The notes under the pieces are model-generated. The model had not been told where the DNA came from. It was given only the letters and a program-made list of their open reading frames with translations, and did not search any database. A stretch of DNA of 64,000 bases from Schaalia canis (GTDB lineage Bacteria; Actinomycetota; Actinomycetes; Actinomycetales; Actinomycetaceae), in NCBI RefSeq assembly GCF_003858455.1, contig NZ_RQZF01000001.1, forward strand, positions 1 to 64,000, in the 5' to 3' direction. Both the position numbers and the translations under genes were made by a program. This document shows positions 1,547 through 53,100 of the stretch, one piece after another (within the stretch, counting starts at the first letter, position 1; every line of letters starts with the position of its first letter).

Positions 1547-2503
1547 ATGGACTATCGCAACTATGGGAGTTTTCTTCCCCATCCGCGACAAGGAGCCGCC
1601 ACAGATCCTGCGACATCGCAGTCGTGGGCATGGAAGGGGCATACGATTCATGTCGCCCGGCGAGTGAACGCACACGCACCTGTCCAGATGATTGTCTGTC
1701 ACGGTGCCGGAGGGTACTCGGACGCGCTATGGCCGATATGCGCTCAAATCCCCGTGCGCCTATGCGACCTTCATATTCCTGATCTTCCTCTTTACGGGCA
1801 CACCTCCACCTCCGAACCGCGCATGGTTCGCTACGGGGACTGGATTGATTGTCTACACGACTACATCCAGAACATTGACGACGGACGCCCAGTTATCCTC
1901 TGGGGTTTTAGCATCGGGGGACTACTTGCTCGCGAGGTCGCTAGTCGCTTGCCTTTCGTCAACGAAGTTATCGCGACCTGCCTCGTTGATCCGCGTTCCC
2001 TTCGTGCTCGCCTCCATATTGGACGCTGGGGGTTAGGTGTGATGGGAGCGCCTTTCCTTGGTCTAGGCAGGCGTTCTCCGTTCGCAGAGCTCATGATTCC
2101 CATGCGATATGTCGCCAATATGGGGCGAATGAGTCGCAATAGTGACCTTTCGCTCCTGTGTATGCGTGATCCACGCGGAGGGGGAACAAGAATCCCTCTT
2201 GGCTTCTTGGCATCGTTCCTTACGTACCGTCATGCATTCACGACATCTCAAGGCCGGGAACCTGTACACACAACCCTCGTTCACCCTGCAAAAGATGCGT
2301 GGACGCCGCCCTCGTTAAGCGTGAAGACCTTGGATCGAATGGATGGATCGAAGCGGATCGTCATGTTGGAAAACTGCGGTCATTTTCCCGTGGAAGAACC
2401 GGGCCTGACACAGCTTATTGCTGTGGTGACCCAGCTCCTTGAGGACGCTACTAGAACTCCTGAGAAGAGCAGATCGAAACGTTTGATAAAAGGGAATGAA
2501 TAA
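1547..2503 (+). CDS. Alpha/beta-hydrolase family protein
   Basis: A 318-residue alpha/beta-hydrolase. HGAGG (52-56) forms the oxyanion loop, GFSIGG (120-125) carries the nucleophile Ser122, and the likely acid and base are Asp250 (HPAKD) and His279 (NCGHF). It has no signal peptide, so it is probably cytoplasmic; the substrate cannot be told from sequence. ATG 1547 is the only usable start because TAA lies just upstream in frame; the GAGG before it is unusually close. The last 20 residues are basic and probably disordered. Confidence 0.8.
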   Translation: MDYRNYGSFLPHPRQGAATDPATSQSWAWKGHTIHVARRVNAHAPVQMIVCHGAGGYSDALWPICAQIPVRLCDLHIPDLPLYGHTSTSEPRMVRYGDWIDCLHDYIQNIDDGRPVILWGFSIGGLLAREVASRLPFVNEVIATCLVDPRSLRARLHIGRWGLGVMGAPFLGLGRRSPFAELMIPMRYVANMGRMSRNSDLSLLCMRDPRGGGTRIPLGFLASFLTYRHAFTTSQGREPVHTTLVHPAKDAWTPPSLSVKTLDRMDGSKRIVMLENCGHFPVEEPGLTQLIAVVTQLLEDATRTPEKSRSKRLIKGNE

Positions 2504-2670: not shown

Positions 2671-4032
2671 ATGCCGCAGGTATTGAAGAACCTTGGGTTC
2701 TCGCCCCTCGCCCTCTTCCAACTCGCCCTCATCACCGTTAATGCCCAGCTCATCTATGCTTTCTGGGACATTCGCAACACCCTCCCCAAAGACTTCCCCA
2801 CGGCAATGGGAGTCACCGACGCCCAAGCTGGCCAGCTCTACGCCATGCAAGGCCTGGTGATTCTCCTCGGTACCATCGCACTGGGATGGATTGGCGATCG
2901 CTTCTCCATCCGCTCCATCATGCTCATCGCCACCATGGGTGTCGGTGCGATCTCCCTCTTCATCACCGTCAGTTCGCCCAACCTGTCCTTCCCCGTCCTT
3001 CTCATCTGCTTCTTCTCCATGCTCCTGCTCTCTGAAGTACTCTTCAAACCAGCAAACTTCAAAGCGGTGCGTATCTCAACGACAGAAGAACACCAGGGCG
3101 CAGCCTTTGGCTTCTTCGAGTTCGGCCGCGGCCTGCTCGCTTTCCTCATCTCCCTGCTGTGGACAGCCATGATCGGAGCAGATGCCTCTCCAAAGACCAT
3201 CATGATGACTGCATCAATCATCGTGCTCGTCACCGGCATTGCTGTTTACTTCGTTGTCCCCAAGGACACGCGTGTTGGAGACGACGAAGAGGTCACTGTT
3301 TCTAGCACGAAGGAAGCCATCAAGGGCGTAGCTGAGGTCGCCAAACTCCCTGTCGTCTGGGTAGCTGGCATTAACGTCTTTTGCATTTACGGCACCTTCG
3401 TTGCAGCGGGTACCTACTTCGCTCGATTCCTCCAAGCTGGCTACGGTACGAGCGCAGTCGCCGCAGCAGCCTTTGCCACCACTGTTATTGCGCTGCGTAT
3501 GCTGCCGTTGGTATCAACGATTCTTGTTGAAAAGGTCTTCAAGACAGCCACCCGCTTCATGCGCGCTATGGAAGTTGTCCTTGCAGTGCTGCTGGTTATC
3601 ATCGCTGTCATGTTCTACACGAACCCAGCCTCCGTCTCTGAGTTCCCAGCAGGACAAGCTCCCGACGGAATCGTCAGCAGTGGCGTCTTCTGGACGCTCA
3701 TTGTCCTCATGCTCATGGCTTCAGCCGTCACCTTCATGATCCGCGGCGTCTACTACGCTCCCATCGGTGAATTTGGCGTACCCAAGAAGCAGTCATCTTC
3801 GGCAATGTCCTTCGCCATCACCTTGGGATATATTCCAGCCCTACTTGCACCGCCGACCCTCGGTGCTCTCATTACGCCAGCCGTTAAAGATGCGGACGGT
3901 ACCGTTGTGACCGAGGTCCTCACACCAACAGCAACCTTGGGAACCGCCTTCATCGGACTGGCAATTCTGGCACTCGTAGCGGCAGTACTCTCACACATTC
4001 TTGTCACCATGCACGCCAAGCGCGCTGCCTGA
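2671..4032 (+). CDS. MFS transporter, organophosphate-antiporter-like
   Basis: A 453-residue major facilitator with about twelve hydrophobic segments and the conserved loop GWIGDRFSIRS after the second helix. The segment around EEHQGAAFGFFEFGRG resembles the equivalent loop of GlpT/UhpT-type organophosphate transporters, so a phosphorylated solute is plausible (inference). AAAGGAG lies 7 nt before the start. The gene is followed by a PI-PLC-like phosphodiesterase, an inositol-phosphatase-like enzyme and a LacI regulator, which suggests import of an inositol phosphodiester or phosphate. A strong hairpin separates it from the next gene. Confidence 0.8.
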   Translation: MPQVLKNLGFSPLALFQLALITVNAQLIYAFWDIRNTLPKDFPTAMGVTDAQAGQLYAMQGLVILLGTIALGWIGDRFSIRSIMLIATMGVGAISLFITVSSPNLSFPVLLICFFSMLLLSEVLFKPANFKAVRISTTEEHQGAAFGFFEFGRGLLAFLISLLWTAMIGADASPKTIMMTASIIVLVTGIAVYFVVPKDTRVGDDEEVTVSSTKEAIKGVAEVAKLPVVWVAGINVFCIYGTFVAAGTYFARFLQAGYGTSAVAAAAFATTVIALRMLPLVSTILVEKVFKTATRFMRAMEVVLAVLLVIIAVMFYTNPASVSEFPAGQAPDGIVSSGVFWTLIVLMLMASAVTFMIRGVYYAPIGEFGVPKKQSSSAMSFAITLGYIPALLAPPTLGALITPAVKDADGTVVTEVLTPTATLGTAFIGLAILALVAAVLSHILVTMHAKRAA

Positions 4033-4041
4033 AACCCTCGT

Positions 4042-4074
4042 GGGTGGGCGGAAGGCAACCCCTTCCGCCCACCC
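4042..4074 (+). terminator. Strong 14-bp hairpin after the MFS gene
   Basis: GGGTGGGCGGAAGG (4042-4055) pairs perfectly with 4061-4074 around the loop CAACC. No T-run follows and the next start codon is only 26 nt away, so this is more likely an attenuating or 3'-end-protecting structure than a full terminator. Confidence 0.65.
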
Positions 4075-4099
4075 CAACACGACAGAGGAAATGAAAGCC

Positions 4100-4966
4100 A
4101 TGAGCCTTGGAATCCCTCACACCCGAAACACCACATGGATGAGCGCACTCACAGACGACACTGCGCTTACCGCCCTCGCCATTCCCGGCACTCACGACAC
4201 CATGACTGCACGGTGCACTGAGCGTTACTACGCCACCCAAGAAGACTCACTCGCTGAACAACTCACCTACGGAGTGCGTTTCCTCGACATTCGCCTTCGA
4301 CGCACCCTCGTCGCCGCCCACCGAGAATGGGTAAGTGACATCTCAGGCCAGGATATCCTCGACACAGTCGGACAATTCCTTGCCGACAACCCCAGCGAAT
4401 GCGTCATTATGCGTATCCAAAATGCCAACGAGGCAAAGGACGACTACCCCGCCTACGGAGAGGCCATTCACGGCCTCATCGGAGCGAACCTCGACATCTT
4501 CCACCTCTGGGAAACACCACACTCCCCCTGGCCAACACTCGGACAATGCCGAGGCCGCGTGCTCGCACTTGAGTGTGCGCCCCCAATGTACGCATTCAGC
4601 GAGCGGCAGGGGATCGTGTGGGCACAAAACTGGCACGACAACCCCTACCTCGATATTCAAGATCTATGGGATGGCCCCAGTATCGAGGACAAGAAAAACG
4701 CCATTGCACGGGCGTTGCGCCACGGTGACGACGACTTAAATACCCTTATTATCAACCACATCAGTGCAACGAACGGCGAACTTGGCTACCCCGATGCCTA
4801 CGCTCAGATCCTTAATCCCTATACGCGGACGCTCAATGAGGCGATTCGCCACGAAGCAACCACGGAATCCGAAAACTACAGGGGGAGAGGAATCCAGATT
4901 TATGACTTCATCAGTCCTGAATTAGCGGCTGCGGTCATTGAACTCAACGACAAGAAAAACCACTAG
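4100..4966 (+). CDS. PI-PLC X-domain phosphodiesterase, cytoplasmic
   Basis: About 288 residues resembling the catalytic X domain of bacterial phosphatidylinositol-specific phospholipase C. IPGTHDTMT (28-36) carries the first catalytic His (32) and Asp33, GVRFLDIRLR (58-67) the substrate-binding Asp and Arg, and AAHREW (72-77) a candidate second His (74). The C-terminal IQIYDF strand also fits the barrel. There is no signal peptide, unlike secreted PI-PLCs, so it probably acts on an imported soluble compound rather than on membranes (inference). ATG 4100 is chosen over 4091 because AGAGGA (4084-4089) is then correctly spaced. Confidence 0.75.
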   Translation: MSLGIPHTRNTTWMSALTDDTALTALAIPGTHDTMTARCTERYYATQEDSLAEQLTYGVRFLDIRLRRTLVAAHREWVSDISGQDILDTVGQFLADNPSECVIMRIQNANEAKDDYPAYGEAIHGLIGANLDIFHLWETPHSPWPTLGQCRGRVLALECAPPMYAFSERQGIVWAQNWHDNPYLDIQDLWDGPSIEDKKNAIARALRHGDDDLNTLIINHISATNGELGYPDAYAQILNPYTRTLNEAIRHEATTESENYRGRGIQIYDFISPELAAAVIELNDKKNH

Positions 4967-4981
4967 GGAAAGAAGATCGTC

Positions 4982-5758
4982 ATGCCACTCAACCGAGAAA
5001 AACTCCTCGAGATCGCGGTTGACGTTGTCGCAGAGGCCGCACGCTTAGCGCGAGAATCACACAAAACATACGAAGTCTCGACTAAGTCAACACGCAATGA
5101 TCTTGTCACGACCGTCGACATAGCGATCGAAGGACTTATTACCTCCCGTCTGCACTCCAAGACCGGCTACCCCTGCATGGGAGAAGAAGGCCACAGCATC
5201 GACTCCTTTGCTGGACCCGTATGGGTCATTGATCCAATCGATGGGACAATGAACTACGTCATGACACACAGAGACTACGCCATATCATTGGCCCTGTGCG
5301 TTGACGGGATTCCAATCATCGGCGTGGTGTGTGATGTCACCGCAGATACCGTTTACACCGCCATCGAAGGGCAGGGAGCATGGTGTGACGGCAAACAACT
5401 CTCTTCCGTCCCCGAAAACACCTCATTTCGCGAGGGAATACTTATTGCCGACGTCAAGGAACTAGAAGCCCTGCCGCGCCTCACGCAGCTCGTGCGAGAA
5501 TCGCGCGGACACCGCCGTTACGGATCGGCTGCCCTTGAATGTATCGAGGTCGCCCGACAACAAGCTGCAGCCTTCGTCCATCTGTGGGTCTCTCCATGGG
5601 ACATAGCTGCAGCCCAACTGATTTGCCAAGAAGCTGGTGTGCGCGTAACGCGGATGGATGGCACCCCCTTGGATACCCGGTATAAGGGGTCCATTCTGGC
5701 TGCTTGGCCACAGGCGCACTCAGAGATGCTCCAACGACTCTGCATCGACCCCTGCTGA
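4982..5758 (+). CDS. Inositol monophosphatase family phosphatase
   Basis: A 258-residue IMPase-superfamily enzyme. The metal-binding set is present: Glu68-Glu69 in GEEG, WVIDPIDGTMNY (81-92) with Asp84 and Asp87, and Asp206 in SPWDIAA. The family removes phosphate from inositol monophosphates and related sugars in the cytosol with Mg2+. It starts 16 nt after the PI-PLC-like gene, so the two are probably co-translated. The pair could take a phosphodiester to inositol phosphate and then to free inositol (inference). A HisN- or CysQ-like role cannot be excluded. Confidence 0.85.
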   Translation: MPLNREKLLEIAVDVVAEAARLARESHKTYEVSTKSTRNDLVTTVDIAIEGLITSRLHSKTGYPCMGEEGHSIDSFAGPVWVIDPIDGTMNYVMTHRDYAISLALCVDGIPIIGVVCDVTADTVYTAIEGQGAWCDGKQLSSVPENTSFREGILIADVKELEALPRLTQLVRESRGHRRYGSAALECIEVARQQAAAFVHLWVSPWDIAAAQLICQEAGVRVTRMDGTPLDTRYKGSILAAWPQAHSEMLQRLCIDPC

Positions 5759-5881
5759 ATGTGGCACGTCAGTGTGGCTGCCACAGCCCTAGACGCAGAT
5801 CATGAAAAACAACGGAGGGAAATAGAACAGAATTCGCGTGCACATTAACGATGCGAATAAAAGGCTCTCAACGGCGAAAGA

Positions 5882-5909
5882 TATACTCACACATGTCACA
5901 TCTATGACA
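5882..5909 (+). promoter_or_regulatory. Candidate lacI promoter and operator
   Basis: TATACT at 5882-5887 is a plausible -10 hexamer. Directly downstream TGTCA (5894-5898) and TGACA (5905-5909) form an inverted repeat spaced by 6 nt, well placed for autorepression by the LacI-type protein at 5935. No good -35 is visible. Confidence 0.35.
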
Positions 5910-5934
5910 GATAAGAGAGATGTTTGGAGGGGAA

Positions 5935-7053
5935 ATGAAACAATCGCGCGTCACCTTGCGCGACATTGCCGACACAGTTGGAACCTCAATCAGCACCGTC
6001 TCTCTGGCACTACGCGACGACGCCCGTGTCAGCGAAAAACTACGCCGAACCATTCAAAACACCGCAGCAGAACTTGGGTACAAAGTTGACCTGCTCGGTT
6101 CCATGATGCGCTCCAATACCCCCCATGTCCTAGGAGTCGTCGGAAGATTCGACCAGGAACTACATGCACATTACATCCGCCTTCTGGGGGAAGAAGCCCG
6201 ATTGCGCGGTTATCAGCTTGTTGCAGAGAACGCCGCTGCCTACGAGCACATGAGCGAAGCATTCAAAACACTTGCCCAATTCCGAATTACGACAACTATT
6301 GCCATTAATCCTGACCCGGATGACCATAACGAGAGCTCTGAAAATGGGCCAAGCGTGGTTATCGGACAGGAAAGGGTTTTCCCACACGCTGACCTTATGA
6401 CCAGCCGAAATGAATCCGGCGCAGAAGAACTAGCCGAACATCTTGACACACTTGGCCATCGTTCCATTGTCTACTTCGATGGTGAACCCGGCGTATCAGC
6501 GCAAAGCCGACGTGAGGCCGTAATCGCGGCATGTCATCGCCACCGAATCCGAGTCGACACTGTTGCCGCCGGCGCAACGATGGATGCTGGTTTTACCGCA
6601 GCCTCCCGTTTGATGGCTGACCAGTGGGCGCAACGACGTCAAAGGACGCGAAGAACAGACGGCGGACGACTTGGAGACTACTCTGCGCTTGTGGGCTACA
6701 ACGACCATTGCATCCAGGGCGCCGCTGTCGCGCTCATGGGGGCCGGCGTGCGTATTCCCACAGATATCTCCCTAGCCGGCTTTGATAACTCTCAGGTCGC
6801 TCAGTCAACGACCTTCAACCTCACCAGCGTTGACCGCGGAGTCCGAAAAATCGCCACAATCGCCCTTGATCGCGCAATTGAGCGCATTACACATCCTGAC
6901 CTTGACGGCATCACCATAGGCGTTGATTCGCACCTTGTCATCCGCACATCAACCGGACGGGCGTTCTACCTCAATGACTCAACGCCTATCCTCTTTCCTA
7001 GCCGGAATCCTCCGACAGACGACAGCGTGGGCAGAGCCACATGTGAACACTGA
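5935..7053 (+). CDS. LacI-family transcriptional regulator
   Basis: About 372 residues. The N-terminal helix-turn-helix reads VTLRDIADTVGTSISTVSLA, followed by a LacI hinge and a periplasmic-binding-protein-like sensor domain containing GYNDHCIQGAAVALMGAGVRIP and the DISLAGFDN motif. ATG 5935 is favoured over 5920 because GGAGGGG lies between them at proper spacing. It sits next to the MFS / PI-PLC-like / IMPase genes in the same direction and is the natural candidate to control them in response to their substrate (inference). Confidence 0.88.
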   Translation: MKQSRVTLRDIADTVGTSISTVSLALRDDARVSEKLRRTIQNTAAELGYKVDLLGSMMRSNTPHVLGVVGRFDQELHAHYIRLLGEEARLRGYQLVAENAAAYEHMSEAFKTLAQFRITTTIAINPDPDDHNESSENGPSVVIGQERVFPHADLMTSRNESGAEELAEHLDTLGHRSIVYFDGEPGVSAQSRREAVIAACHRHRIRVDTVAAGATMDAGFTAASRLMADQWAQRRQRTRRTDGGRLGDYSALVGYNDHCIQGAAVALMGAGVRIPTDISLAGFDNSQVAQSTTFNLTSVDRGVRKIATIALDRAIERITHPDLDGITIGVDSHLVIRTSTGRAFYLNDSTPILFPSRNPPTDDSVGRATCEH

Positions 7054-7290: not shown

Positions 7291-10065
7291 ATGGCAGACG
7301 ATTACCGAGGACGACCCGACAACTCTCATGGTGGGCCCCGCCGTCAATGGCGCGATTCTGGTGACCGATCATGGCGCGGCGAAGATCGCCCACGTCGCTC
7401 ATTTGGCGATCGGGATGATCGCCGCAACAATTTTGATCGTGACGATCGTGGGGATCGTCGTTCCTTTGGTGATCGGGATGATCGTCGCGGTGGATTTGGC
7501 CGTGATGACCGAGGGGAACGTCGTGGCGGTTTTGGCCGTGATGACCGAGGGGAACGTCGTGGCGGTTTTGGGCGTGATGATCGCCGTGGTGGTTTTACCC
7601 GTGATGATCGTGGGGATCGTCGTTCCTTTGGTGATCGGGATGATCGTCGCGGTGGTTTTAGCCGTGATGACCGAGGCGAGCGTCGTGGCGGTTTTGGCCG
7701 TGATGATCGCCGTGGTGGTTTCACTCGTGATGATCGTGGGGATCGTCGTTCCTTTGGTGATCGGGATGATCGTCGCGGTGGTTTCACTCGTGATGACCGA
7801 GGCGAGCGTCGTGGCGGTTTTGGCCGTGATGACCGTCGTGGTGGTTTCACTCGTGATGATCGTGGGGACCGTCGTGGTGGTTTTGGGCGTGATGATCGCC
7901 GTGGTGGTTTTACCCGTGATGATCGTGGGGACCGTCGTTCCTTTGGCGATCGAGGCGAGCGTCGTGGCGGTTTTGGCCGTGATGACCGTCGCGGTGGTTT
8001 CACTCGTGATGACCGAGGGGATCGCCGGGGCGGCTTCCAACGAGACGACCGACGCGGAGGCCGCGACCAACAACGCGGCGCAGACTACCGCTCCACCGAC
8101 GAATACGTTTCTCCCACAGGTGACGAACCGACAATTCCCGCAGGCGTATCTGCCGAAGAACTTGACGCCCTCGCACTACGCTCTTTGAACACCCTGTCAG
8201 GGGCAAACCGCGATATCGTCGCACGCCATCTCGTCATGGCAGGCCAGCTCATCGACCTTGACCCCGAACAGGCCTACGCCCACGCTCAGGCTGCCGCCAA
8301 GCGCGCGGGACGAGTCGATGTTGTCCGTGAAGCAGCAGCACTTACCGCCTACGCTTCGGGCCGCTACGAAGAAGCCCTGCGCGAGGTGCGTGCCGTACGC
8401 CGCATGCGTGGCGACAACTCCCTACGAGCAGTCGAAGCCGACGCAGAACGCGGAATGGGACGCCCCGAAAAGGCTATCCAAATCATCGACGAAACCGAGA
8501 CGAAGGGCATGGAGCTTTCCGAGCAGGTTGAGCTCGTGCTCGTCTCCTCCGGTGCGCGGGCAGACATCGGACAAAATGAAGTTGGCCTACTCATCGTCGA
8601 CGAAGCTTTGGCAGCACTGCCTGAAGATACCGACCCGGCACTGGTCATGCGACTCATGTCTGTTAAAGCTGATCGCCTGCGTGAACTCGGCCGCGACGAA
8701 GAAGCCGACACAGTTGAGGCTGACATGCCCACGATCGTCGAGGATCCTGAGATCGTTGATCTTTCTCTCTACGCTGATGCGGATGTCGATAAGAAGACCT
8801 CACCGCTGCGAGGCACCGAAGAAGCCCTATGCGCCACCTACGACGTGGCCCTACTTGATCTTGACGGCACCGCATACCAGGGCAAGGAACCCATCGAACA
8901 CGCCGCGCAAGCTACCAACGAGGCACAAGATGCTGGCATGCTCGTTGCCTATGTCACGAACAACGCCATGCGTACGCCGGCCGCGATTGCTGAACATCTC
9001 AAGGAGCTTGGTTTCGATGCCGCGCCCGAGGCCGTCATGACCTCCTCCATGGATGTCACCGCCCTCATGGCCGAAGAAATCGAAGAAGGCTCCACAGTTC
9101 TCGTCATTGGCGCTCAGGGACTGCGCGAACCCATCGAGGCCGCCGGATACGTCGTTGTCGAATCCGCCGACGATGCCCCCGCTGCCGTCGTACAAGGCCT
9201 GGACAAGTCCCTCAACTGGGCAACCCTGTCTGAGGCAGCCTTCGCCATCCAGCGCGGCGCCAAATTCTTCGCCACCAACCTAGACTCGACCCTGCCCGTT
9301 GAACGAGGCTTCGCTCTGGGCAACGGCGCGCTCGTACGCGCGGTCCAGCATGCTACCGGTGTGCGCCCCATTGCCGCAGGCAAGCCTGAAGCTGGTATCT
9401 ACCATCGGGGCGCCGCCCTTGTTGGTGGCACCAACCCGCTGGCAGTAGGCGATCGTCTCAACACTGACATTGCCGGTGCCGTCACTGCGGGTATTCCCTC
9501 GCTGCATGTCCTCACCGGTGTTTCCTCTGCGCGCGATGTCATCTGCGCCCAACGAGGCCAACGCCCCACATACCTTGCGCTCGACATGCGCGGACTCAAT
9601 GAGTCCCACCCGCGCCCCAAGCACCACCGCGACGGCACCTGGACCTGTGGTGTCTCCCAAGTCGCCAAGGTCCTGCGTGACGGTACCCTGACTGTTGACG
9701 GCGTTGCCCTGACCAGTGACGTTACCGTTACCCTGGATACCTACCGCGCCTTGGCTGCAGCCGCATGGGAATATGCCATGGAACAACGTGCCGACGTTAT
9801 CTGCCCTGAGATCACGGTTGTTGAAAATGACGATCCGGCGGGTCTTGTTGTCGCTCCCGAAGAACCCGAGCATGTTGAGGCTCCACTCGATACCGATGCA
9901 GAAGAGGCTGACGGCTTCGACGACGCTGACATGGAACTCGGCGCCCATGCTGATGGTCTTGATGACGCTCCCGAAGAGACCGTGACCTTCCTTCCCGGAG
10001 AGGAAGAACTCGAAGAACTCCTCGGTGACATCTCCGACATGGATGACATCGTTGGGGACAACTGA
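7291..10065 (+). CDS. RG/D-rich repeat + TPR + HAD-IIA hydrolase fusion protein
   Basis: A 924-residue protein in four parts. Residues ~25-265 are a low-complexity repeat of RGGFGRDDR, RGGFTRDDRGD and RRSFGDRDD units, strongly polyampholytic and surely disordered. Residues ~275-500 are Ala-rich helical TPR-like repeats (for example ALREVRAVRRMRGD). From ~515 a HAD-IIA (NagD-like) phosphatase begins with DLDGTAYQG, has the TNN motif, and ends with GDRLNTDIAGA. The C-terminal ~90 residues are very acidic (EEELEELLGD). In Mycobacterium the HAD (Rv1692) and a TPR protein (Rv1691) are separate genes before tlyA, so this looks like their fusion. GAGGA lies 5 nt before the start. Substrate unknown. 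Confidence 0.85.
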   Translation: MADDYRGRPDNSHGGPRRQWRDSGDRSWRGEDRPRRSFGDRDDRRNNFDRDDRGDRRSFGDRDDRRGGFGRDDRGERRGGFGRDDRGERRGGFGRDDRRGGFTRDDRGDRRSFGDRDDRRGGFSRDDRGERRGGFGRDDRRGGFTRDDRGDRRSFGDRDDRRGGFTRDDRGERRGGFGRDDRRGGFTRDDRGDRRGGFGRDDRRGGFTRDDRGDRRSFGDRGERRGGFGRDDRRGGFTRDDRGDRRGGFQRDDRRGGRDQQRGADYRSTDEYVSPTGDEPTIPAGVSAEELDALALRSLNTLSGANRDIVARHLVMAGQLIDLDPEQAYAHAQAAAKRAGRVDVVREAAALTAYASGRYEEALREVRAVRRMRGDNSLRAVEADAERGMGRPEKAIQIIDETETKGMELSEQVELVLVSSGARADIGQNEVGLLIVDEALAALPEDTDPALVMRLMSVKADRLRELGRDEEADTVEADMPTIVEDPEIVDLSLYADADVDKKTSPLRGTEEALCATYDVALLDLDGTAYQGKEPIEHAAQATNEAQDAGMLVAYVTNNAMRTPAAIAEHLKELGFDAAPEAVMTSSMDVTALMAEEIEEGSTVLVIGAQGLREPIEAAGYVVVESADDAPAAVVQGLDKSLNWATLSEAAFAIQRGAKFFATNLDSTLPVERGFALGNGALVRAVQHATGVRPIAAGKPEAGIYHRGAALVGGTNPLAVGDRLNTDIAGAVTAGIPSLHVLTGVSSARDVICAQRGQRPTYLALDMRGLNESHPRPKHHRDGTWTCGVSQVAKVLRDGTLTVDGVALTSDVTVTLDTYRALAAAAWEYAMEQRADVICPEITVVENDDPAGLVVAPEEPEHVEAPLDTDAEEADGFDDADMELGAHADGLDDAPEETVTFLPGEEELEELLGDISDMDDIVGDN
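7430..8060. repeat. In-frame tandem repeat coding the RG/D-rich domain
   Basis: Imperfect tandem copies of about 27-36 nt, organised in a larger unit of about 126 nt (42 residues) that recurs with small changes. A 36-nt unit is duplicated almost exactly near 7500-7571. All units preserve the reading frame. The repeat keeps another plus frame and two minus frames open for hundreds of bases, producing spurious long ORFs. Confidence 0.9.
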
Positions 10066-50176: not shown

Positions 50177-53100
50177 ATGGGCCCCGCAGCTTACGCAGAA
50201 CTTCACGCACACTCAGCTTTTACCTTCCTGGAAGGCTCTTCCCAACCTGAGGAACTTGTTGCTGCTGCCCGCAATGTCGGATTAGAAGCCCTTGCAGTCC
50301 TTGACGTCGACGGCATGTATTCGGCGATTCAAAGCGCAACGGCCGCACGACTTCAAGGGGTGCCCTATGTGCACGGTGCTGAACTGACCCTCGATCCGAC
50401 CTATTTTGTTGACCTTCGCTTCAACGAGGCTCTTTCCCCCGGCTGGGGGCTGGTAAAAGGTGCTGATGAACCGGGTATTCGACTGCCGATTCTTGCTCAA
50501 ACTCCTGAGGGATACACGCGTCTTTGCCGGGCTATGAGTGAGTACACCCTTTCTCACCCGGGGCAGCGCTTCTGCCGTCATTACCTGCCGACCTTGGCAG
50601 AACACGCTGGGGGCCAGTGGGCCGTGCTGACAGGAAGCGCACGAGGCCCCCTTCGCCGAGCGCTCCGCAGTGAAGGCATTGATGCCGCACGGAAAGTTCT
50701 TAGGGAGCTCATTGAGCTTTTTGGTTCTGAGAACGTGCTGGTGGAAAGCGTCTTGACGCCAACAGACCCCCCAGAATTAGCTGACACTCTTGCTGAACTT
50801 GCGCAGTGGGCGAAACTTCCCCTTGTCGCCACCGGGGCAGTGCGCAGTGCAACTCCCGCTGGTCAACACCTCGCAGATGTATTGACAGCAACGCGTCTGC
50901 ACGCCACTTTGACGCAGGTGGAAGCCCACCTGCCTGCACAAGGGGCCTTTTTGCGCAGTGCTGAAGAAATGTGTGCCATCCACTGGCGTCATCCGCAGGC
51001 TGTCAGAACTGCTGCCGAATACGGGCGAGAGTTCGCCTTTGATCTACGACTTATTGCCCCTGAGCTCCCACGCGCATATGTACCCGCAGGTCATACGGAC
51101 GCGACATGGCTCAGAGAGCTGACCTACCGTGGTGCTCAAGAACGCTATGGTACGCGCGAGGAACATCCACGGGCATGGCGCACTATTGATCACGAACTAG
51201 AAGTCATCGAAGCCCTCACATTCCCCGGATATTTTCTTATCGTCAAGGAAATCGTTGATTTCTGCGCTCAGCAGGGTATCTACTGTCAAGGGCGTGGCTC
51301 TGCAGCAAACTCAGCGGTGTGTTACGCCCTCGGAATTACCGCCGTAGACGCCGTCCAGCATCAGTTGCTTTTTGAACGTTTCTTATCAACAGGTCGCTCG
51401 GGGCCCCCAGATATTGACATTGACATTGAGTCTGAGCGCCGTGAAGAAGTCATCCAACATGTTTACGCTCGTTACGGACGAGAATATGCCGCACAGGTAG
51501 CTACAGTGATTAGCTACCGTGCTCGTTCAGCAACCTACGACGCGGCAAAGGCACTCGGCTTTCCTGAGGAAGTTTCTCGAGCATGGTCAAAGAATCGACA
51601 TCGCTGGGAAGAAGAGGAAGCGAGCACCATCCAGCAGCTCACGCAGGAATCCCCAGCCGACACCGACAACAATCGTCGTGAGCAAAGGAACCCTAGCCCC
51701 ACACATACCGCGGTCTCGATCTCTCAACTCCCGACACAGGTGCGCCGTGTTGCTGACGCTCTGAAACGTTTGCCTCGCCATATGGGAATCCACACCGGAG
51801 GGATGGTTCTGACAAAAACTCCAGTCTCAGAAGTGTGTCCAATTTCCTGGGCCGCCACCCCCGATCGCAGTGTCCTGCAATGGGACAAGGACGATTGCGC
51901 GGACGCTGGCCTTGTGAAGTTTGATCTTCTTGGTTTAGGGATGCTCAGTGCTCTTCGGCGTGGTTTTCAATGGATTGAATCCTTCGGTGAACGTGGGGAT
52001 GAGGGAACGCCGTACTCTTTACATAATCTTCCTCACGAAGATCCTCGTATTTACGACCTGCTGTGTGCAGCAGATACGGTTGGGGTGTTTCAAGTGGAGT
52101 CGCGAGCGCAGATGAACACTCTGCCTCGTCTGCGACCGCGTTGCTTTTACGACATTGTTGTTGAGGTGGCCCTCATCCGCCCTGGGCCTATCCAGGGGCA
52201 GGCCGTTAACCCCTATTTGCGGCGTCGACGAGGTGAAGAAGCGATCACATACCTGCATGAGGCTCTCAAACCTGCCCTTGAAAAAACTATGGGAGTAGCG
52301 ATCTTTCAGGAACAACTGATGCAGATCGCGATGGATGCAGCAGGTTTTACTCCTGCGCAAGCTGATGAGCTGCGTCGTGCCATGGGGTCTAAACGATCAC
52401 CGGAACGGATGGCGGCTCTTTACCCCCTATTGGTTGAAGGGATGGCTGAGCGGGGGATCGGACAAGAAGTGGCCGACCAGGTGTATCGGCATTTGCAGGG
52501 CTTTGCTGAGTTTGGTTTTCCAGAATCGCATGCTTTTTCTTTTGCTCACCTGGTGTACTCCTCATCCTGGATGAAGGTCTACTACCCGGAAGTTTTCTAT
52601 GCGGCGCTTCTTGCTTCCCAACCAATGGGTTTTTATTCGCCGGCTTCGCTTGTGCATGATGCGCGACGCCATGGCGTGCGTGTGGGGCGTCCTGATGTGA
52701 ATCTTTCGCAGATAAAGGCCCATCCGCGATTGTGCTGTGAGGAACAAGACGCTGAGGAAAGGCGCTGGAGCAGGGGAGTGAGGGTGTCTTCCCGGTGGGA
52801 GTTGCGACTTGGATTGGACAGTATCGCAGGACTTGGCGAGGCCGCTCGCCGGATCGTTGACGCCAGGGGAGAGCATCCTTTCGTTGATAGTGCGGATTTA
52901 GCTCGGCGCTCTCGTTTAAGTCGGCATGAAATGGATTTGCTTGCTCAGGCTGGCGCTCTGGAGAGTATGGGAATCGAACGTCGTGCGGGGATGTGGGAGG
53001 CGGCACAAGTTGGGGGAGAGAAGGAAGAACAAGCAGTTCTGCCGGGATTGGAGCTTGTTGTCCCGTCTCCCCAGTTCGATGCCATGAATGGTGCTGAAGT

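What the first reader, a model, noticed from the sequence alone, without database searches (positions are those of the whole stretch)
2671..7053. Possible inositol-phosphodiester utilisation cluster (MFS + cytoplasmic PI-PLC + IMPase + LacI)
An organophosphate-antiporter-like MFS gene is followed by a signal-less PI-PLC X-domain enzyme, an inositol-monophosphatase-family enzyme 16 nt later, and a LacI regulator. The order fits import of glycerophosphoinositol or another soluble inositol phosphodiester, its cleavage to inositol phosphate plus alcohol, and dephosphorylation to inositol. Inositol is in demand in actinobacteria for phosphatidylinositol and mycothiol. An intracellular PI-PLC in this setting, rather than a secreted virulence factor, would be a new use of the fold.
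Basis: inference. Interest (0 to 1): 0.72.

Follow-up and report, generated by a model that had tools for sequence, protein, structure and literature searches.

The report
Inositol-phosphodiester import and salvage gene cassette
A small gene cassette, found in some animal-associated bacteria, probably imports a soluble inositol-phosphate compound and cuts it inside the cell with an enzyme type otherwise known as a secreted lipid-cutter, so that the freed inositol can be used as food.

Summary
In detail: window 2671-7053 encodes an MFS transporter, a PI-PLC X-domain enzyme with no sign of a signal peptide, an inositol-monophosphatase-family enzyme and a LacI regulator. MFS and PLC occur in the same 16 of 200 family genomes and lie together in all 22 loci examined, including Histophilus, Gallibacterium and Propionibacterium acidifaciens. 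In Histophilus they lie between iolB and iolA; in genome G142 beside an iol cluster. IolD, marker of myo-inositol catabolism, is in 16/16 cassette-positive but 78/184 cassette-negative sampled genomes. MshA above cut-off is in 0/16 and Ino1 shows no association, so the inositol is most likely burned. Nine of 22 loci replace the phosphatase with a homologue of T. maritima TM0415, a PPi-dependent myo-inositol kinase whose product, Ins(1)P, is what a PI-PLC makes; the seven inositol-pocket residues checked are identical. An operator-like palindrome (TTCAAACGTTTGAA) precedes the MFS gene in 13 loci, not in exact form in the window. Best explanation: import of glycerophosphoinositol (or cyclic inositol phosphate), cytoplasmic cleavage to Ins(1)P, conversion to inositol, iol catabolism. 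Substrate and activities are inferred, not shown. My paper searches found no description.

The parts
2671..4032 (+). MFS transporter, 453 aa, of a distinct subfamily that was found only together with this PLC in the genomes searched; proposed importer of a soluble inositol phosphodiester
   Evidence: in the same 16 of 200 family genomes as the PLC and in 1 of 396 genomes of the phylum sample, the own one (E<=1e-60); model pLDDT 68.7 with MFS-fold matches including Spns2, G6PT1/SLC37A4 and DgoT
4100..4966 (+). PI-PLC X-domain enzyme, no sign of a signal peptide (ATG 4100; alternative ATG 4091); proposed cytoplasmic phosphodiesterase giving inositol 1-phosphate (via the 1,2-cyclic form)
   Evidence: residues aligned with B. 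cereus H32, D33, D67, R69, H82 and with the late Asp of 1aod are invariant in the 11 members aligned (H32, D33, D63, R65, H74, D269; catalytic roles recalled)
4982..5758 (+). inositol-monophosphatase-family enzyme, proposed to hydrolyse Ins(1)P to inositol
   Evidence: same slot in 8 of 22 loci, the window included
5920..7053 (+). LacI-family regulator (likely start 5935)
   Evidence: homologue near the cassette in 15 of 22 loci, the window included
2474..2487 (.). operator-like site TCGAAACGTTTGAT (in the 3' end of the upstream ORF)
   Evidence: score 9.7, a weak match to the relatives' motif; TCGAAACGTT core conserved in L018
2555..2565 (.). operator-like site AATCGTTTCGA in the MFS 5' region
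   Evidence: By eye: conserved with L018 but for one base; not found by the motif scan

Best explanation
The cassette is a peripheral salvage module for soluble inositol phosphodiesters that feeds myo-inositol catabolism. The MFS imports the diester, most likely glycerophosphoinositol (from deacylated phosphatidylinositol of host or fungal cells). The cytoplasmic PI-PLC homologue cleaves it by the usual PI-PLC chemistry, through inositol 1,2-cyclic phosphate, to 1D-Ins(1)P plus glycerol. The IMPase (in this genome) hydrolyses Ins(1)P to inositol and phosphate; in most of the Actinomyces loci and in P. acidifaciens a TM0415-like inositol kinase has that slot; where neither is in the cassette, another IMPase of the genome could serve. 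Inositol then enters the iol pathway. The LacI regulator represses the operon from operators upstream of the MFS gene. Shown: gene content, linkage, co-occurrence with IolD, conserved catalytic and inositol-binding residues, a recurring operator-like palindrome. Inferred: transport substrate, enzyme activities, direction of the kinase, repression.
For: MFS and PLC: the same 16 of 200 family genomes, together in 22 of 22 loci examined, the window included. IolD above cut-off in 16/16 cassette-positive against 78/184 negative genomes and in 4 of 4 further genomes searched, H. somni, two Gallibacterium and P. acidifaciens. In H. somni (L019) MFS and PLC lie between iolB and iolA (TIGR04378 and TIGR01722 above cut-off), with iolD about 10 kb after the MFS start. 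In G142 they adjoin an iol cluster (IolA, IolD, IolC, IolG above cut-off; IolE-like below). The own genome has iolA, B, C, D and E matches, all above cut-off, on another contig. In 9 of 22 loci the slot holds a TM0415 homologue whose seven checked inositol-pocket residues are identical; TM0415 itself makes Ins(1)P from inositol (PMC5931981, text parts 1-3 of 6 read). Operator-like site (score 18 or more) in 12 of 15 loci with the LacI and 1 of 7 without (Fisher p = 0.007; cut-off chosen afterwards).
Against: No biochemical data. The MFS substrate cannot be read from sequence; the model is of moderate confidence (pLDDT 68.7) and similarity to GlpT/UhpT/UhpC is weak (hhalign probability 20.6%, E 0.0011). 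The IolD association is not corrected for phylogeny, and 78 genomes have IolD without the cassette. In the window's genome the iol genes lie on another contig and no cassette-type operator (score 11 or more) was found there; the window itself has only weak variants of the operator. Five of 22 loci have neither phosphatase nor kinase in the cassette. Neighbours in P. acidifaciens only resemble iol genes, below cut-offs, and in it and Gallibacterium I saw no iolD beside the cassette.
Confidence: 0.7

Rival explanations
1. The imported substrate is inositol 1,2-cyclic phosphate (released by secreted PI-PLCs of other cells), and the PLC works only as the cyclic phosphodiesterase that opens it to Ins(1)P.
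For: The same downstream genes fit. Bacterial PI-PLCs also catalyse this second step (recalled). Nothing I saw in the sequence tells the two diesters apart.
Against: In PI-PLCs the cyclic-phosphate step is usually the slow one (recalled); no call tests it.
Confidence: 0.15
2. The PLC cleaves the cell's own phosphatidylinositol (lipid turnover) and the MFS carries something else.
For: PI-PLC fold and catalytic residues are intact; actinobacteria can contain phosphatidylinositol (recalled).
Against: The pair is kept in three Pasteurellaceae loci, Gram-negatives not known to me to make phosphatidylinositol (recalled). Ino1 was not found in the own genome and is in 4 of 16 cassette-positive genomes. 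MFS-PLC linkage and IolD association. The position aligned with the B. cereus interface Trp242 (role recalled) is Y, N, I or T in the 11 rows (by eye).
Confidence: 0.07
3. The inositol phosphate is a biosynthetic precursor (phosphatidylinositol, other inositides), the cassette compensating for loss of Ino1.
For: Ino1 is not found in the own genome and is missing from 12 of 16 cassette-positive genomes.
Against: Ino1 is missing from 112 of 184 cassette-negative genomes too (p = 0.30). MshA above cut-off in 0 of 16. IolD in all 16. Actinobacterial phosphatidylinositol synthesis uses Ins(3)P (= L-Ins(1)P), the other enantiomer (recalled).
Confidence: 0.06

Closest known systems
Bacterial secreted PI-PLCs (Listeria, Bacillus, S. 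aureus; Pfam PF00388)
   Same: Fold (TM 0.82 to 1aod) and the catalytic residues checked
   Different: No sign of a signal peptide in 21 of 22 loci scored; beside an MFS gene in 22 of 22 loci; linked to inositol catabolism; a family-typical RIQNANEAKDD-like stretch
GlpT/GlpQ glycerophosphodiester use (E. coli)
   Same: Logic of using glycerophosphodiesters; glpT and glpQ are neighbours
   Different: GlpQ-type enzymes give glycerol 3-phosphate plus the alcohol (stated in the abstract of PMC4926365); here a PI-PLC would give inositol phosphate plus glycerol inside the cell, and the MFS is not evidently GlpT-like
iol myo-inositol catabolic pathway (survey PMC9430895)
   Same: Cassette co-occurs with IolD and in two loci lies beside iol genes
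   Different: Adds an entry point from phosphodiesters; the survey's main text has no occurrence of 'phospholipase', 'phosphodiester' or 'glycerophospho' (word search and two passages only)
TM0415 PPi-dependent myo-inositol 1-kinase (Thermotoga maritima; PMC5931981)
   Same: Cassette kinase of Actinomyces and P. acidifaciens: pocket residues D11, I76, N78, S89, L116, Q141, R145 and donor residues K171, R229, R232, M266 identical in 9 of 9; RXGRGD motif
   Different: F221 is Leu in 9 of 9; genomic partner is a PI-PLC; physiological direction may be reversed (inference)

Membership tests
PI-PLC X-domain (PF00388) | Domain score above gathering cut-off | tested here: met
   24.5 against 23.1 bits; 25.7 in the genome search
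PI-PLC X-domain (PF00388) | Catalytic His/Asp/Arg/His/Asp set | tested here: met
   H32, D33, D63, R65, H74, D269 invariant in 11 of 11 aligned (L027, L029 and the nine loci not in that alignment); equivalences, roles recalled
PI-PLC X-domain (PF00388) | Cleaves inositol phosphodiesters | not testable with these tools
   Needs an assay
Secreted PI-PLC (virulence type) | Signal peptide | tested here: not met
   No hydrophobic stretch of that kind in 21 of 22 loci scored; hydrophobicity only, no predictor; L027 could not be scored
Inositol monophosphatase family (PF00459) | Score above cut-off | tested here: met
   181 bits against 27. All seven NCBIfam equivalog hits are below their cut-offs, so the substrate within the family is open
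Organophosphate:phosphate antiporters (GlpT/UhpT/PgtP) | Clear profile similarity | tested here: not met
   hhalign 20.6% against E. coli GlpT/UhpT/UhpC; PgtP model matched by 9 of 13 members, best 8.2e-6, RbtT by 13 of 13, best 8.8e-9 (E up to 1). Fold matches include G6PT1/SLC37A4 but also Spns2 and DgoT
PPi-dependent ribokinase-family inositol kinase (kinase-type cassettes, not the window) | Five donor-site signature residues of PMC5931981 | tested here: inconclusive
   4 of 5 identical in 9 of 9; F221 replaced by Leu in 9 of 9
PPi-dependent ribokinase-family inositol kinase (kinase-type cassettes, not the window) | Acceptor-pocket residues that go with the Ins(1)P product | tested here: met
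   7 of 7 positions checked identical in 9 of 9
Myo-inositol catabolic gene set | IolD present in the genome | tested here: met
   16/16 and 4/4 cassette genomes above cut-off; the genomes of L025 and L029 were not searched

The most novel reading that the evidence does not exclude
Bacteria have domesticated the PI-PLC fold as a cytoplasmic catabolic phosphodiesterase with a dedicated inositol-diester importer. In Actinomyces and P. acidifaciens the phosphatase step is replaced by a PPi-dependent inositol 1-kinase running backwards (Ins(1)P + Pi gives inositol + PPi), so that the phosphoester energy is kept as pyrophosphate.
Probability: 0.25. Interest if true: 0.78.

Novelty: new variant of a known kind. 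Interest (0 to 1): 0.64.

Why it matters
The bacterial PI-PLCs with solved structures that matched here come from Listeria, Bacillus and S. aureus, known to me as secreted, membrane-attacking enzymes. A cytoplasmic, transporter-coupled one would show how animal-associated bacteria can use the phosphatidylinositol breakdown products of host and fungal cells as carbon and phosphate, and would give a substrate-based name to an MFS subfamily. The alternation of IMPase with a TM0415-like kinase offers a physiological setting for the PPi-inositol kinase; its discoverers raised the possibility of a different true acceptor because of the 12 mM Km for inositol. A reverse, Ins(1)P-consuming role would fit a poor affinity for inositol (my inference).

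Tried and rejected
Mycothiol or Ino1 compensation: not supported. PPi-based glycolysis in the kinase-type genomes as support for a PPi-making role: the seven phosphofructokinases read have GGGGT where I recall PPi types having GGDDT (TIGR02483 above cut-off in 0 of 12), so the idea got no support. My recollection of a PPi-PFK in Actinomyces naeslundii was not found in print (one search gave reference-list hits only). Cassette on plasmids: no match at E<=1e-60. Cassette-type operator in iol clusters: none at score 11 or more in L041, L042, L043, L045-L048; one in L044 inside iolD; low hits inside ORFs of L030, L019 and L021, and one of 12.9 upstream of the MFS in L033. In that scan 20 sites scored 11 or more in 29 loci (378,442 bases) against 4 in one letter shuffle; the motif was built from nine of the sites, so finding those again is by construction (new at 18 or more: L023, L024, L029, L034). 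Alpha/beta hydrolase 1547-2503 as part of the cassette: found only in the window and L018, left out. IMPase-like hits at 25-26% identity in L020 and L021, about 1.4 kb upstream of the MFS, were not counted as cassette phosphatases. Promoter/terminator scan: 4 and 6 sites against 2.7 and 4.6 in shuffles, none used. An operator-like hit at 51966 (score 16.4) lies inside a 1144-aa ORF. Literature: no description found (listings; of PMC9430895, PMC3426162 and PMC3339403 only passages, of PMC5931981 parts 1-3 of 6); the library holds open-licence papers only. PLC rows L027 and L029 have broken reading frames (sequence error and decay not told apart) and were left out of the PLC alignment, not mended. 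The exclusion of IMPase and kinase (0 of 22 loci with both) rests on few events: in the MFS tree the kinase loci need two changes.
Full report
What is there. Window 2671-7053 holds four forward genes: MFS transporter, PI-PLC X-domain enzyme, IMPase-family enzyme, LacI regulator. The gaps are 67, 15 and 176 nt (with starts 4100, 4982, 5935). The four genes are under purifying selection between the two (dN/dS 0.028, 0.115, 0.063, 0.101).

The enzyme. The PLC has the PI-PLC fold (model pLDDT 89.0, pTM 0.90; best solved match 1aod, TM 0.82, 31% identity). The residues aligned with the known catalytic set are invariant in the 11 members aligned (roles recalled). No sign of a signal peptide in 21 of 22 loci scored, by hydrophobicity only; L027 could not be scored. 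In the own genome it is the only PF00388 match.

Linkage. In a sample of 200 genomes of the family (own genome included) the PLC is in 16 (E<=1e-10) and the MFS subfamily is in the same 16 (E<=1e-50). In a phylum sample the MFS is in 1 of 396, the own genome (E<=1e-60). MFS and PLC lie together in all 22, nine times with a kinase gene between them. Three loci are Pasteurellaceae and one is Propionibacterium acidifaciens. The MFS is 67-68% identical between the window and the Pasteurellaceae, and in the MFS tree the Pasteurellaceae group with six Actinomycetaceae rows (96/93; root only for drawing). I infer horizontal transfer.

Inositol context. In Histophilus somni (L019) the pair lies between iolB (other strand) and iolA, followed by a Gfo/Idh dehydrogenase and sugar ABC transporter genes; iolD follows about 10 kb after the MFS start, L047 overlapping L019 identically. 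A published comparison of two H. somni strains lists a myo-inositol locus (PMC3339403, one passage read); I did not check that it is this one. In G142 the PLC gene faces an IolE-like gene of an iol cluster with IolA, IolD, IolC and IolG above NCBIfam cut-offs, IolE-like below. In P. acidifaciens a sugar porter and Gfo/Idh genes nearby resemble iol genes but score below cut-offs. IolD is above cut-off in 16 of 16 cassette-positive and 78 of 184 cassette-negative genomes of the sample (Fisher p = 2.7e-6, not corrected for phylogeny), and in 4 of 4 further cassette genomes searched. The own genome has iolA, B, C, D and E matches above cut-off. Results against use in biosynthesis: MshA above cut-off in 0 of 16; Ino1 in 4 of 16 against 72 of 184 (p = 0.30).

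The phosphate step. Eight of 22 loci, the window among them, have the IMPase after the PLC; nine have a PfkB-family kinase between MFS and PLC; five have neither (L019, L020, L021, L030, L034); none has both. In 20 genomes searched this kinase (E<=1e-20) is found in 7, each time at the place of the cassette. Its only solved relatives at E<=0.01 are TM0415 and chain 7e4l. TM0415 uses PPi and not ATP or ADP, and makes 1D-Ins(1)P (PMC5931981, text parts 1-3 of 6 read). Of the residues named there, the seven acceptor-pocket positions I checked are identical in 9 of 9 cassette kinases; of the five donor-site residues four are identical and F221 is Leu in 9 of 9. PI-PLC cleavage gives the 1-phosphate (recalled), so both alternatives act on the same compound. 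The kinase could run backwards, as the paper says PPi-PFK and PPi-acetate kinase can; for TM0415 the main text has 'reverse' once, about PPi-PFK, so this is my inference. Against a strict need for it: each of the 20 genomes has at least one IMPase-family protein. The alternation rests on few evolutionary events.

Regulation. A CG-centred palindrome TTCAAACGTTTGAA lies upstream of the MFS in 13 loci (14 sites scoring 18 or more of 25); nine of these sites made the motif. It is in 12 of 15 loci that have the LacI homologue and 1 of 7 that do not (Fisher p = 0.007; the cut of 18 was chosen after seeing the scores). Window and L018 lack the motif at that score but share two variants, at window 2474-2487 and 2555-2565. 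The own iol cluster shows no such site.

Transporter. The MFS has no solved sequence relative at E<=0.01. Its model is of moderate confidence; fold matches include Spns2, G6PT1/SLC37A4 and DgoT at TM 0.5-0.7. It is not shown to be an organophosphate antiporter. Its substrate is inferred from its partners only.

Verdict. It is best described as an entry module of inositol catabolism built on an intracellular PI-PLC, with a lineage-dependent phosphate step.

Noticed in passing
window 7291-10065: A long ORF (924 aa) starts with many RGGF/DRDDR-type repeats and continues into a HAD-hydrolase-like part (judged by eye, no family search); a like ORF is in L018.
   Followed up: no
L022-L029 and L038, between MFS and PLC genes: TM0415-like kinase homologues, 9 of 9 with the RXGRGD motif: candidate PPi-dependent kinases in Actinobacteria.
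   Followed up: yes
L027 about 7010-7040 and L029 after 7693: PLC reading frame broken in the Actinomyces sp. oral taxon 448 and A. ruminis records; sequence error and decay not told apart.
   Followed up: no
L041:3399-4535; like ORFs by eye at L030:9002-10147 and L044:15934-17061: A zinc-alcohol-dehydrogenase-like gene (best NCBIfam hit NDMA-dependent type, below cut-off; only the L041 one scanned) recurs near iol genes or the cassette in three genomes.
   Followed up: no
L053-L059: Phosphofructokinases with a GGGGT stretch where donor-specific residues are expected (recalled); all below the TIGR02483 cut-off.
   Followed up: partly
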